Source: Gadus chalcogrammus (Eukaryota; Chordata; Actinopteri; Gadiformes; Gadidae). Taken from it: DNA of 64,000 bases. Numbering within the stretch: the stretch's first letter is position 1; the number at the start of each line of letters is the position of its first letter. Below, in pieces: positions 26,060 through 57,284 of this stretch. The stretch covers positions 27,343,835-27,407,834 of the forward strand of contig NC_079422.1 in assembly GCF_026213295.1 (NCBI RefSeq), written 5' to 3'. The notes beneath the pieces are model-generated. The model was not told the origin of the DNA, made no database searches, and saw only the letters and a list, made by a program, of their open reading frames with translations. The translations under genes were made by a program, and so were the position numbers.

Positions 26060-26167
26060 TCAGCTGAGCAGCTCCAGGTAGGTGACAGGAACTCTTCCTC
26101 TGTGGTTTTCTCTCTCTCCGATCAGCCAATCAGAATCCATCCCAGGCACTGTATACACTGTAATCAG
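26060..26167 (-). CDS. sh3glb2: sh3glb2 exon 11 (end of SH3)
   Basis: 36 codons including the stop, LITVYTVPGMDSDWLIGE to VPVTYLELLS, with the SH3 Trp and Pro-Tyr surface. A (GT)n tract (plus strand) starts two bases from the stop codon. Confidence 0.95.
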   Translation of the reverse strand: MITVYTVPGMDSDWLIGERENHRGRVPVTYLELLS

Positions 26168-26178
26168 CTGAGAACACA

Positions 26179-55400: not shown

Positions 55401-57284
55401 CTGGTAGAACTCGCTGAGCTCCCAGCAGAACGGGGAGGAGCCACGGCTCACCTGACCATACGCTCTCCTTCCAAAGAGCTGAAGACCCCCAGACGTTCTC
55501 AGAGGAGATGGGCTGTCACGCGTGTTTGAGTGAGCTCTTCAGAACCGTCCCAGTCGGTCTAGAGGGGAGGTCTACGTACGTGATGAAGAACCGGTTCCTG
55601 ATCTGTAGGTCTAGGGAGGTCTACGTACGTGATGAAGAACCGGTTCCTGATCTGTAGGGTCTAGGGGAGGTCTACGTACGTGATGAAGAACCGTTCCTGA
55701 TCTGTAGGTCTAGGGAGGTCTACGTACGTGATGAAGAACCGGTTCCTGATCTGTAGGGTCTAGGGGAGGTCTACGTACTGATGAAGAACCGGTTCCTGAT
55801 CTGTAGGGTCTAGGGGAGGTCTACGTACGTGATGAAGAACCGTTCCTGATCTGTAGGGTCTAGGGGAGGTCTACGTACGTGATGAAGAACCGGTTCCTGA
55901 TCTGTAGGGTCTAGGGGAGGTCTACGTACGTGATGAGAAGTCAGCCTTGCTCTTGGAGTTGCTGATGAACTGCAGGTAGAAGTCGTCGGAGCTGAGGGAG
56001 GAGCGATACTCCTCCTCGCTCAGACCCAGGACCTCCTCAAGGAGCTGAACACCGGGCCCGAGAAGGTCCGCTCTGGAAGCCCTGGAGACAGGTCCAGTCT
56101 GAGACAAGGTCCAGTCTGAGACAAGGTCCAGGCTGAGACAAGGTCCAGGCTGAGACAAGGTCCAGGCTGAGACAAGGTCCAGGCTGAGACAAGGTCCAGG
56201 CTGAGACAAGGTCCAGGCTGAGACAAGGTCCAGTCTGAGACAAGGTCCAGCTGAGACAGGTCCAGGCTGAGACAAGGTCCAGGCTGAGACAAGGTCCAGT
56301 CAGCGACAAGGTCCAGTCTGAGACAAGTTCCAGGCTGAAGCTCTCCAGGAGAGCTACACTAATACCCTAACCCTCTCCCTTTATAAGAACACGACATGTT
56401 AAGTAACCCTAACCTCTCCCTGTTAATATAACATGACAGGGATGTCTAGTGGAGTTACCATATTGTTCATATAACTGGAATGTTTAAGATTACTTTAATG
56501 ATGAGTAGATATACTGTCATGTTTATAAACTGTATTGTTTGTGGATAGTAGTAATGTGAATGAACTGTAATGTTAAGTATCACTGTAATGATTATAAACG
56601 GTAATGTTTAGATAATACCTTAGGTTAAGTCATTAACTTAATGTTTATAAACTGTCAAGTTAAGTTCATTAACTTAATGTTTATTCCTGTGAAGGTAAAG
56701 TCACTCACCTCATGGACCTGATTTCCTGTTTTTTGAAACAATCAGCTGTCAGTTGTTCCTGGGGTGTGTGGGGAGGAGGGTGGAGTCTGAGTCACATGTT
56801 GCACCACCACCAATCACATTTAATTCATCCAATGATAAAACAATAATAACCGTAAATACTAACTTGGTTGGTCACATTTACATTGTTATCATACTAATTG
56901 GACGCTCTGGTGAGTCTCGCTCTCTCCCTCCCTCCCTCCCTACCTCCCTCCCCCTCCCTCCCCCCCTCCCACCCCCCCTCCCTCCCTCCCCCCTCCCCCC
57001 CTCCCCCCTCCCCCTCCCTCCCTCCTTCCCCCTCCTCCCTCCCCCACCCCCTCCCTCCCTCCCTCCCCCCTCCCTCCTGTGTGTGGTGGCGGCCTCACCA
57101 GGGGGGGGGGGTCCAGGTTGTCCGTCAGGGCCGTCTGTAGTCCGGTCTTGATGAAGCAGCCAGGTCGTAGAAGTCGTGGTCCTGGTTGATCTCGAACACT
57201 CCCAGCATGCTCCACAGCATCCGCGCTGCCACCACGCCGCCGCCGCGTCGCGCCAGACGCTGACGCCTTCTTCTTGGCCGGCAT
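48706..57284 (-). CDS. pip5kl1: Phosphatidylinositol-4-phosphate 5-kinase-like 1 (pip5kl1), indel-ridden
   Basis: Minus-strand exons: 57099-57284, 56709-56725 (tentative), 55930-56081, 55048-55168, 54269-54303, 53798-53818, about 51957-52064, 49716-49879 and 48706-49080. Landmarks in order are LGVFEINQDHDFYDL, LSEEEYRSSLSSDDFYLQF, KTQSHREVKFLLSNLR, GVHKITVPNHTK, KYFIIMQ, YDIKGC, SWFEEQVELDSAFLRSLN, DYSLLIGQQ, YFVGIIDVFTQYGWRKRLEH and VSPHAYSLRLCQWV, which match the PIP kinase fold in correct order. Human PIP5KL1 has little lipid kinase activity and acts as a scaffold for type I PIP kinases. At least eight single-base indels break the frame, and the block between IIMQ and RYDIKGC (SVFYP in human) is not found. 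Either the sequence has errors or the gene is decaying. I favour sequence error. Confidence 0.82.
49120..49705. repeat. (CA)n array with a higher-order unit
   Basis: CA tracts interrupted at regular intervals by ATGAACATAATAAAC and GACAGAGACAAAC words, giving a higher-order repeat of about 60-110 bp. In the pip5kl1 intron before the last exon. Confidence 0.9.
49716..49879 (-). CDS. pip5kl1: pip5kl1 exon 8
   Basis: After TGTGCAG; ERSWFEEQVELDSAFLRSLN, one extra base, then DYSLLIGQQALHLDELDQRH and LATLVNRTT. Donor AAA|GTAGGA, phase 2, fits exon 9. Confidence 0.8.
49885..50620. repeat. GTACGGTACAGTAGA minisatellite at the exon 8 acceptor
   Basis: About 50 variable copies of AGTACGGTACAGTAG-type units, beginning a few bases from the pip5kl1 exon 8 acceptor, whose own sequence (CGTACTCTGTGCAG) resembles the unit. 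Confidence 0.9.
50621..51956. repeat. 37-bp minisatellite at the exon 7 donor
   Basis: About 35 copies of a 37-bp unit (AGTAGTTTAGTAAAGTGTAC plus CCAGTGTGATCTAGTGC). A short block at about 50895-50970 is inverted. Confidence 0.93.
51957..52064 (-). CDS. pip5kl1: pip5kl1 exon 7
   Basis: After CTCCAG; YDIKGCERGR, then after one indel LDGADPQGSPVISVLKDNNF. The donor is uncertain because the minisatellite begins in the exon end (CACACTGG|GTACAC). Confidence 0.65.
52080..53770. repeat. 41-bp minisatellite in pip5kl1
   Basis: About 41 copies of a 41-bp unit (CTAACCCCTACCTGCTCCTT plus AATGACCTGTCTCTGTACTGT). The expected SVFYP-coding exon should lie here and is not visible. Confidence 0.95.
53798..53818 (-). 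CDS. pip5kl1: pip5kl1 exon 6, 21-nt
   Basis: Between CTGTCTCCCCAG and GTGTGTC; KYFIIMQ, the core beta strand of the PIP kinase N-lobe. Confidence 0.75.
54060..54268. repeat. GGTTACCCTGGTTCCCTT minisatellite at the exon 5 donor
   Basis: About 20 copies of 9-18-bp units. On the minus strand, CCAAGGTAACCAGG repeats the donor ACCAAG|GTAACCAG of pip5kl1 exon 5. Confidence 0.9.
54269..54303 (-). CDS. pip5kl1: pip5kl1 exon 5
   Basis: 35 nt, phase 1 to 0, between CTCTCTCCCTCAG and GTAACC. Encodes VHKITVPNHTK after the split Gly codon, at the position of human VHSLRVDRGKK. Confidence 0.78.
54330..55035. repeat. GATATAGAAGAGACAGAATA purine-rich array
   Basis: Degenerate units of about 10-30 bp built on GATATAGA, GATACAGA and GAGACAGA. 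It creates a long Ser/Ile/Tyr-rich minus-strand frame that is not a gene. Confidence 0.9.
55048..55168 (-). CDS. pip5kl1: pip5kl1 exon 4
   Basis: Encodes HDKRFF, LKTQSHREVKFLLSNLR, LYVDHLNRYP and HSLLVR across three frames. Donor GGGTACGG. Confidence 0.75.
55555..55929. repeat. ~50-bp minisatellite at the exon 3 donor
   Basis: About seven copies. The minus-strand unit contains TTCTTCATCACGTACGTAGA, which is the exon 3 end plus its donor. Confidence 0.93.
55930..56081 (-). CDS. pip5kl1: pip5kl1 exon 3
   Basis: Begins GFQSG after CTCCAG and contains FSGPVFSSLRRS, then LGLSEEEYRSSLSSDDFYLQ and FISNSKSKADF. Three apparent indels. The donor CATCAC|GTACGT is repeated in the adjoining array. Confidence 0.75.
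56086..56335. repeat. 17-bp minisatellite at the exon 3 acceptor
   Basis: About 14 copies of GCTGAGACAAGGTCCAG. On the minus strand the array passes straight into the exon 3 acceptor (GGACCTGTCTCCAG). Confidence 0.93.
56709..56725 (-). CDS. pip5kl1: pip5kl1 candidate 17-nt microexon
   Basis: Between AAAAAACAG and GTGAGTG. In the fitting frame it encodes NQVHE, matching TQVHE of human PIP5KL1 at this point. Confidence 0.45.
56930..57080. repeat. (CCCTCC)n polypyrimidine tract
   Basis: C/T-only run on the plus strand, 19 bases from the exon 1 donor of pip5kl1. Confidence 0.95.
57099..57284 (-). CDS. pip5kl1: pip5kl1 exon 1
   Basis: ATG 57284 opens MPAKKKASASGATRRRR. After a frame shift comes RMLWSMLGVFEINQDHDFYD, and after another CFIKTGLQTALTDNLDPP. 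Donor CTG|GTGAGG. Two indels. Confidence 0.7.

What the first reader, a model, noticed from the sequence alone, without database searches (positions are those of the whole stretch)
26060..57284. Minisatellites seeded at exon-intron junctions and stop codons
In the three host genes many arrays start at, or within a few bases of, a splice site or stop codon, and their unit contains that junction: donors at 26709, 32956, 36445, 51957, 54269 and 55930, acceptors at 33053 and 56081, stops at 6680 and 48706. The chance of so many arrays ending at junctions is low. It suggests that functional junction sequences seed tandem amplification in this lineage, or that short arrays survive best when they copy the site they touch. 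I know of no described process of this kind.
Basis: partly seen in the sequence, partly recalled or inferred. Interest (0 to 1): 0.88.

Follow-up and report, generated by a model that had tools for sequence, protein, structure and literature searches.

The report
Minisatellites copied from splice junctions
In this codfish DNA (most likely walleye pollock), many repeat arrays inside introns are tandem copies of the exon-intron border itself, so that spare splice sites are repeated up to about 40 times; such arrays are already described in lancelets, and here they likely arise by ordinary local duplication that splicing would tolerate rather than by a new process.

Summary
The window (most likely walleye pollock; 0.56 Mb from a scaffold end) carries TNF-like, SH3GLB2 and PIP5KL1 genes whose intron bases are 56% tandem arrays. 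An array lies within 10 bp of the donor in 10 of 19 array-bearing introns (2.8 expected) and overlaps the exon at 6. Units resemble the exon they touch (permutation p=0.00025 donors, 0.009 acceptors). Neighbouring TOP3B and PPM1F, with exons located blind to arrays, repeat this at donors and acceptors. A PIP4K2-like gene on C13 has 8.9 copies of a 34-mer with 24 exon-derived bases plus the donor.

Such arrays are in print as 'mirages' of lancelets (PMC3087553) and as exon-intron repeats in human duplicated genes (PMC2812944). Paralogues on C4 and C23 lack them at donors. Against uniform seeding that allows exon overlap, the excess is about 1.3-2.2-fold and is not significant for minisatellites under the strictest null. 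Most likely: local tandem duplications that happen to span junctions, in a minisatellite-saturated zone, tolerated by splicing. Splicing itself is untested.

The parts
6476..6694 (-). Array overlapping the last 15 bp of the TNF-like coding sequence (GACCTGGAGCTGTAG) and running into the 3' flank; stop codon 6680-6682
   Evidence: TRF; stop placed with P0241; unit-exon score highest with its own unit among 29
8527..8760 (-). 18-bp array (TATTCTACCTTGTCCCAG) ending 2 bp before the TNF-like start codon at 8525; units resemble a 3' splice site, but the 5' UTR acceptor is only putative
   Evidence: TRF; start codon; exon similarity not significant
26011..26059 (-). (AC)n array starting at the base after the SH3GLB2 stop codon (26060-26062)
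26271..26681 (-). 26-bp array 27 bp inside the SH3GLB2 donor 26709|26708; unit shares AGACCAG with the exon end
32562..32960 (-). 29-bp array spanning SH3GLB2 donor 32953|32952; unit holds CAGAAGCAGCTAGC (exon CAGAAGGAGCTAGC) and GTGGTAGGA; GT kept in 13 of 13 copies found
33063..33140 (-). 20-bp array 9 bp inside SH3GLB2 acceptor 33054|33053; unit holds GTCAACCACCTG (exon start GTGAACCACCTG); AG absent from the 4 copies found
35724..36451 (-). 22-bp array spanning SH3GLB2 donor 36445|36444; unit holds CTCAGGGTAGG (one G fewer than the exon edge; GT at the aligned place in 3 of 21 copies found by a gapless scan)
41706..42245 (-). (GTCT)n array 4 bp inside SH3GLB2 donor 42250|42249
42349..42462 (-). 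40-bp array ending 6 bp from SH3GLB2 acceptor 42343|42342
44728..45123 (-). 17-bp array 6 bp inside the donor of a SH3GLB2 microexon (45130|45129)
   Evidence: a microexon at this place fits the Myripristis protein P0026 but is absent from the Gadus models seen
47886..48713 (-). 20-bp array spanning the PIP5KL1 stop codon (48706-48708); unit holds CCCAGTGACCCC
49127..49707 (-). (TG)n-rich array 8 bp inside PIP5KL1 donor 49716|49715
49888..50600 (-). 5-bp array ending 8 bp from PIP5KL1 acceptor 49880|49879
50616..51968 (-). 37-bp array spanning PIP5KL1 donor 51957|51956; unit holds exon end AGATCACACTGG plus GTACAC; GT kept in 31 of 32 copies found
52089..53769 (-).
   Evidence: exon-only similarity by itself not significant
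54066..54274 (-). 9-bp array spanning PIP5KL1 donor 54269|54268; the Gadus morhua model reads two units further (VTSETK) before its exon ends
54333..55041 (-). 9-bp array 6 bp inside PIP5KL1 donor 55048|55047 and 29 bp from the acceptor at its other end
55563..55936 (-). 50-bp array spanning PIP5KL1 donor 55930|55929; unit holds TTCTTCATCAC (FFIT) plus GTACGT; GT kept in 6 of 6 copies found; 7.5 copies at 100% matches in the second assembly copy
56085..56338 (-). 17-bp array 3 bp inside PIP5KL1 acceptor 56082|56081; short unit-exon match

Best explanation
Many minisatellites in these codfish genes are tandem copies of a short segment that spans the exon-intron junction, so the copies hold bases of the exon edge and most hold an intact GT or AG; they likely arose by ordinary local tandem duplication in a minisatellite-rich part of the chromosome and likely persist because splicing would still use the copy that touches the exon. 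Shown: the junction-spanning units, their coding content, the repeated GT or AG, the high array content of this zone, and replication in two neighbouring genes and one gene on another chromosome. Inferred: that the first copy arose by slippage, unequal exchange or end joining; that later growth is ordinary array turnover; that edges stop at coding sequence because selection removes arrays that run further into exons; and that the exon-adjacent copy is the one spliced. The Gadus morhua PIP5KL1 model suggests one exception, where a later copy ends the exon.
For: Units carry codons conserved outside the array: FFIT, QITLG and VNHL in the window, YYKT and GYTAVM in TOP3B, VHRKYDLK in the PIP4K2-like gene. 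So the exon is the source and the array the copy. Intact GT in 111 of 114 copies found at six donor arrays (40/40, 31/32, 13/13, 6/6, 14/15, 7/8) and AG in 6 of 6 at one TOP3B acceptor (copies were picked by similarity, which favours intact sites). Array content of introns: window 56%, TOP3B+PPM1F 59%, C4 and C23 paralogues 6% and 5%. Array content of 4-kb samples: ten within 1 Mb of a scaffold end 0-90%, mean about 34%; nine others 0-27%, mean about 11%; one more sample was all N. Uniform seeding already predicts 7.2 of the 12 exon overlaps. Lancelet papers report the same structure.
Against: Uniform seeding does not explain everything: p=0.025 for exon overlap and 30 of 74 intron ends within 10 bp against at most 20.6 expected (p=0.012). 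Three of the ten scaffold-end samples (C6, C13, C22) have 2% arrays or less, so nearness to an end is not sufficient, and that these ends are telomeres was not tested. The clear PIP4K2-like case lies 4.3 Mb inside C13. Five kinase exons near other scaffold ends gave one flush (GT)n array and no junction-copying array. At four arrays the gapless scan found no or few intact copies: SH3GLB2 36445 (3 of 21 with GT in place), acceptor 33054 (AG in 0 of 4), TOP3B 20070 and 7139 (no copies found), TOP3B 12191 (one); by eye their copies carry small indels. No RNA data, so which copy is spliced is unknown.
Confidence: 0.7

Rival explanations
1. Junctions are preferred birthplaces: some feature of a splice junction (AG|GT microhomology, R-loops or stalled forks in transcribed DNA) makes tandem duplication start there more often than elsewhere in the intron.
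For: Edges within 10 bp at 30 of 74 intron ends against 13.6-20.6 expected; exon overlap 12 against 7.2; both donors and acceptors in the held-out genes.
Against: The excess shrinks to 1.3-fold, and to p=0.12 for minisatellites, when the ancestral intron is assumed short; held-out exon overlap alone p=0.14; no sense-strand excess of splice-like motifs among all 49 units; 0 of 16 donors in the C4 and C23 paralogues, though these have few arrays to begin with.
Confidence: 0.17
2. Saturation only: introns of this zone are so full of arrays that edges must meet exons, and the resemblance of units to exon ends is incidental.
For: 56% and 59% of intron bases are arrays; several flush arrays are simple repeats such as GTCT, TG and GT with no exon similarity.
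Against: Unit-exon similarity exceeds re-paired controls: donors p=0.00025 and acceptors p=0.009 in the window; donors p=0.009, acceptors p=0.005, together 0 of 20,000 in the held-out genes. Units with 12-24 exon-derived bases cannot be incidental.
Confidence: 0.08
3. Functional arrays: repeated splice sites are kept because they regulate splicing (decoys, recursive or dual-specific sites as in human UBC) or lengthen exons usefully.
For: Intact GT in 111 of 114 copies found at six arrays; the cod PIP5KL1 model extends its exon by two units, VTSETK, absent from P0122 and P0123; AGGT sites in human tandem repeats can act as both site types (PMC10809524, passages).
Against: Other unit positions also look homogeneous, so intact sites are expected from array turnover (not tested position by position); exon-extension evidence is a predicted model; paralogues do without arrays.
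Confidence: 0.04
4. Assembly artefact: long-read errors or mis-joins created or exaggerated the arrays at junctions.
For: The locus is assembled twice around a 100-N gap with 98.2% identity and many 1-bp indels; PIP5KL1 frames are broken in the window copy.
Against: Arrays and junction overlaps are present in both copies; the same structure occurs in TOP3B, PPM1F and on C13; indels do not create tandem copies of exon ends; cod species are reported to be unusually rich in tandem repeats (PMC5241972).
Confidence: 0.01

Closest known systems
'Mirages' of amphioxus (minisatellite-like tandem duplications of exon-intron boundaries; Adh3, globin BflGb6/BflGb9, TnC, PGBD5)
   Same: Tandem units span the exon-intron boundary, at both 5' and 3' exon edges; many but not all copies carry AG/GT; units 10-160 bp there, 9-56 bp for the exon-overlapping arrays here; the boundary copy differs from the homogenised inner copies (PMC3087553 and PMC3902484, passages).
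   Different: Here a vertebrate (gadid); many junctions of five neighbouring genes are affected at once; up to about 40 copies; set in a minisatellite-saturated zone. Normal splicing was shown by RT-PCR there and is untested here.
Internal tandem repeats at exon-intron boundaries of human genes in segmental duplications
   Same: Minisatellite-sized units (about 30 bp) at exon-intron boundaries of vertebrate genes, able to alter splicing (PMC2812944, passages).
   Different: There found by repeat-number differences between recent paralogues with RNA support; here arrays of tens of copies in single-copy genes without RNA evidence.
Tandem repeats of the Atlantic cod and haddock genomes
   Same: Same family of fishes; about threefold higher tandem-repeat density than other vertebrate assemblies is reported for Atlantic cod (PMC5241972, passages; also PMC6868369, PMC5894186, passages).
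   Different: In the passages seen, these papers treat genome, promoter and coding density and assembly trouble; the main text of PMC5241972 has no hit for 'splice' or 'exon' and one for 'intron', in its reference list.
Intron gain by tandem duplication of AGGT-containing segments; dual-specific splice sites in tandem repeats (UBC, VCX3A)
   Same: Tandem units that carry splice sites can move or create intron borders (PMC10809524, passages; PMC4974935, abstract start only).
   Different: No new intron was seen here; the arrays lie inside introns whose flanking exons match homologous proteins.

Membership tests
Mirage (boundary-spanning minisatellite) | Tandem repeat unit spans an exon-intron boundary | tested here: met
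   6 window donors with array overlapping the exon; 6 of 25 held-out intronic minisatellites overlap an exon by 3 bp or more, 4 at donors and 2 at acceptors; PIP4K2-like donor
Mirage (boundary-spanning minisatellite) | Both 5' and 3' exon edges can be involved | tested here: met
   Donors in both gene sets; acceptors at SH3GLB2 33054 by similarity and TOP3B 6426 and 12191 by overlap
Mirage (boundary-spanning minisatellite) | Many, not all, copies hold AG/GT splice signals | tested here: met
   GT in 111 of 114 copies found at six donor arrays; AG in 6 of 6 at one acceptor and 0 of 4 at another
Mirage (boundary-spanning minisatellite) | Inner copies homogenised, exon-adjacent copy not | tested here: inconclusive
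   Seen in some arrays (PIP4K2-like copies share differences from the exon; 32953), not in PIP5KL1 51957, where 26 of 32 copies found match the exon part exactly
Mirage (boundary-spanning minisatellite) | Regular splicing is not disturbed | not testable with these tools
   No RNA data; gadid protein models keep the flanking exons
Mirage (boundary-spanning minisatellite) | Length instability between alleles | tested here: inconclusive
   Two assembly copies: 18 of 25 arrays compared differ by 8 bp or less, 7 by 13-45 bp; the copies are probably the same allele
Variable internal tandem repeats of human segmental duplications (PMC2812944) | Repeat number differs between recent paralogues, with transcript support | not tested
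   No recent paralogue with a shared array and no RNA was available

The most novel reading that the evidence does not exclude
In codfish chromosome-end zones splice junctions are preferred birthplaces of minisatellites, so that most introns there acquire arrays of spare donors or acceptors, and the spliceosome sometimes moves to a later copy: an ongoing vertebrate route by which exon ends slide and proteins gain repeats, visible already in the cod PIP5KL1 model (VTSETK).
Probability: 0.17. Interest if true: 0.8.

Novelty: new variant of a known kind. Interest (0 to 1): 0.5.

Why it matters
Lancelet mirages were proposed to feed intron gain and boundary sliding (PMC3087553). A fish chromosome zone where several introns per gene carry such arrays, next to array-poor paralogues of the same genes elsewhere in the genome, gives a natural test of how splicing picks one site among dozens of identical ones and of whether junctions are mutational hotspots or only the edge of what selection allows. 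It also warns annotators: units carry exon ends and splice sites, so gene models in cods may wrongly, or rightly, extend exons into arrays.

Tried and rejected
Rejected or scaled back. (1) A donor-specific bias: strong in the window (10 donors, 5 acceptors within 10 bp) but absent in the held-out genes (8 and 7). (2) A general excess of sense-strand splice motifs in units: 27 against 19, p=0.30; AGGT 11 against 8 of 49. (3) A lineage-wide rule: 0 of 16 paralogue introns with an array within 20 bp of the donor, 1 of 16 within 20 bp of the acceptor. (4) A simple chromosome-end rule: three of ten end samples array-poor; five kinase exons near ends gave one flush (GT)n and no junction copy. (5) Stop codons as a class: 3 of 3 in the window, 0 of 2 in the held-out genes. 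(6) Using the second assembly copy as an independent allele: probably a false duplication. (7) A fit of the PIP5KL1 41-bp unit to both the donor and the next acceptor exon (CATTAAGG, shuffle p=0.018) was not pursued.

Rows dropped before counts. PPM1F: 2 of 6 exon pairs gave no junction call (20 of 22 introns kept; one kept call has a poor score; without it donors 7 and acceptors 6 of 17, p=0.004 and 0.026). C23: 1 of 8 pairs without call. Three TOP3B alignments were trimmed by hand before calling. PIP kinases: 25 of the 35 hits were fetched and 49 of 50 exon ends used; 6 have an array within 45 bp, ends being approximate; besides the C13 case, one C20 locus (L025) has a 2.2-copy array running about 9 bp into the hit, its exon edge unresolved.

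Literature: searches. I saw no report of boundary-spanning arrays in cods in the lists returned, but lists were capped (for example 25 of 161, 12 of 177) and the library is partial. The founding Adh3 paper was seen only as cited in PMC3087553.
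Full report
WHAT THE WINDOW IS. The window is codfish DNA. Its TNF-like protein matches a Gadus chalcogrammus (walleye pollock) protein at 100% over all 210 residues. SH3GLB2 is 90% identical to the Gadus morhua protein, and PIP5KL1 81% (several frames in the window are broken by small indels). The species is therefore inferred, not named by a record. The own-genome search places the window at C11:27343835-27407834 of a 629.9-Mb assembly, 0.56 Mb from the end of a 27.96-Mb scaffold. 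All three genes are on the minus strand: TNF-like (8.5-6.7 kb), SH3GLB2 (47.1-26.1 kb), PIP5KL1 (57.3-48.7 kb).

CHECK OF THE OBSERVATION. I placed 48 junctions and stops (22 donors, 23 acceptors of which one is a putative 5' UTR acceptor, 3 stops) from protein alignments and GT/AG. TRF arrays with score 60 or more cover 56% of 28.5 kb of intron. Of 22 introns, 19 have arrays; the array edge lies within 10 bp of the donor in 10 (2.84 expected if the non-array bases are spread at random, 0 of 20,000 simulations) and within 10 bp of the acceptor in 5 (2.84 expected, p=0.11). With residual intron capped at 150 bp the donor result is p=0.0009. Arrays run into the exon at 6 donors (5-12 bp) and at no acceptor. 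Local similarity of the 20 exon bases to the touching unit, against re-paired units: donors p=0.00025 (15), acceptors p=0.009 (11), stops p=0.16 (3). In 10 of 29 cases no more than one other unit scores as well as the own unit.

THE UNITS ARE COPIES OF CODING EDGES. Examples: PIP5KL1 donor 51957, unit AGATCACACTGG|GTACAC..., where the exon codes FQGQITLG in cod; donor 55930, unit TTCTTCATCAC|GTACGT, exon FFIT; SH3GLB2 acceptor 33054, unit GTCAACCACCTG, exon VNHL; donor 32953, unit CAGAAGCAGCTAGC...GTG|GTAGGA. Because these residues are kept in proteins of other species, the exon is the source and the array the copy. Copies keep the splice dinucleotide: GT in 111 of 114 copies found at six donor arrays (two of them outside the window); AG in 6 of 6 at TOP3B acceptor 6426 but 0 of 4 at 33054; GT in place in 3 of 21 at 36445, where units are one base shorter. 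Copies were selected by similarity, which favours intact sites.

HELD-OUT TEST. The next genes on C11 are TOP3B and PPM1F. Arrays fill 59% of intron bases. Among 18 introns with arrays, the edge is within 10 bp of the donor in 8 (2.85 expected, p=0.00085) and of the acceptor in 7 (2.85 expected, p=0.005); with the 150-bp cap the two together are 15 against 7.5 (p=0.0008). Unit-exon similarity: donors p=0.009, acceptors p=0.005, together 0 of 20,000. TOP3B shows the structure at its clearest: GGTCTCCTAG|GTTACAGGCGGTGATG repeated before GGTCTCCTAG|gttacacggcggtgatg; TTGATTCTGCAG|GTGTGTG... six times before TTGATTCTGCAG|gtgttc; and ACTACAACACAG|GTA... after actacaagacag|GTAAGA.

ELSEWHERE IN THE GENOME. 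SH3GLB paralogues on C4 and C23 (the C4 one sits beside a second PIP5KL1-like gene) have 16 called introns with 6% and 5% arrays, 0 donors and 1 acceptor with an array within 20 bp. At 49 approximate exon ends of PIP kinases on other chromosomes, 6 have an array within 45 bp, and one is a textbook case: C13 4.264 Mb, exon end gtccaccggaagtacgacctcaag|GTAACC followed by 8.9 copies of GTCCACAGGAAGTACCGCCTCAAG|GTAACC.... Five kinase exons near other scaffold ends: one flush (GT)n array, no junction copy. Array density in 4-kb samples is higher near scaffold ends (ten samples, mean about 34%, range 0-90%) than elsewhere (nine samples, mean about 11%, range 0-27%), but three end samples are at 2% or less.

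IS THE JUNCTION PREFERRED? I collapsed each array to one unit, placed it uniformly in the collapsed intron and allowed up to 24 bp of exon. This predicts 7.2 exon overlaps of 3 bp or more among 49 intronic minisatellites; 12 are seen (p=0.025; window 6 against 3.4, p=0.07; held-out 6 against 3.8, p=0.14). With at most 12 bp of exon the expectation falls to 4.8; with 40 bp it rises to 8.1; with a 5-bp overlap criterion the held-out set gives 4 against 3.4, p=0.45. For edges within 10 bp, 30 of 74 intron ends against 13.6-20.6 (0 of 20,000 to p=0.012); minisatellites alone 21 of 62 against 9.4-16.2 (0 of 20,000 to p=0.12). So more than half of the junction-copying arrays are what random duplication in short, array-filled introns would give; a further excess is likely but modest and depends on the ancestral intron length, which I could not observe.

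MECHANISM. Shown: boundary-spanning units, coding source, repeated splice dinucleotides, high local array content. Inferred: initial duplication by slippage, unequal exchange or end joining; growth by ordinary array turnover; removal by selection of arrays that extend further into exons; use of the exon-adjacent site. One hint of the alternative: the Gadus morhua PIP5KL1 model ends exon 5 two 9-bp units later than the ancestral junction, adding VTSETK, which the window sequence also encodes and which P0122 and the Polymixia protein P0123 lack. It is a predicted model and needs RNA.

PRIOR ART. Boundary-spanning minisatellites are known as 'mirages' in lancelets; the authors report that splicing is normal, that many but not all copies carry AG/GT, and propose them as a source of new introns (PMC3087553, passages; PMC3902484, passages). 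Human genes in segmental duplications have minisatellite-type repeats at exon-intron boundaries (PMC2812944, passages). Cod genomes are known for extreme tandem-repeat density (PMC5241972, PMC6868369, passages). What is new here, as far as my capped searches show, is a vertebrate chromosome zone where five neighbouring genes are affected, with the same structure in a gene on another chromosome.

Noticed in passing
12211-58289 against 58390-64000 and the following 40 kb of C11: The locus is present twice, 46.1 kb apart, joined by a 100-N gap (58290-58389): 17868-56941 matches downstream sequence at 98.2% over 39.5 kb in one alignment. Differences are largely small indels, and PIP5KL1 exon edges that are broken in the window copy are intact in the other; likely a false duplication of overlapping contig ends.
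   Followed up: partly
6680-8525: The TNF-superfamily-like gene found only 8 relatives in the protein search: five named ones, all in Gadus, Boreogadus or Arctogadus, and three short unnamed ones; possibly a gadid-specific ligand.
   Followed up: no
26897-32561: A (GTAGTACTGA)n array of about 3 kb whose unit reappears at 30526-30569 and 32484-32561, beyond about 2.5 kb of unrelated sequence, as if mobile elements had inserted into the array.
   Followed up: no
50891-50972: A short stretch of the 37-bp PIP5KL1 array lies in the opposite orientation to the rest of the array.
   Followed up: no
C4:9.39-9.41 Mb (L012-L015): A second SH3GLB2-like and PIP5KL1-like pair sits together on C4, array-poor: a natural paralogous control for the window genes.
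   Followed up: yes
L025 (C20:14.406 Mb): A 65-bp, 2.2-copy array runs about 9 bp into a PIP-kinase-domain exon hit (KVFDLKG); possibly another exon-edge copy, edge not resolved.
   Followed up: partly
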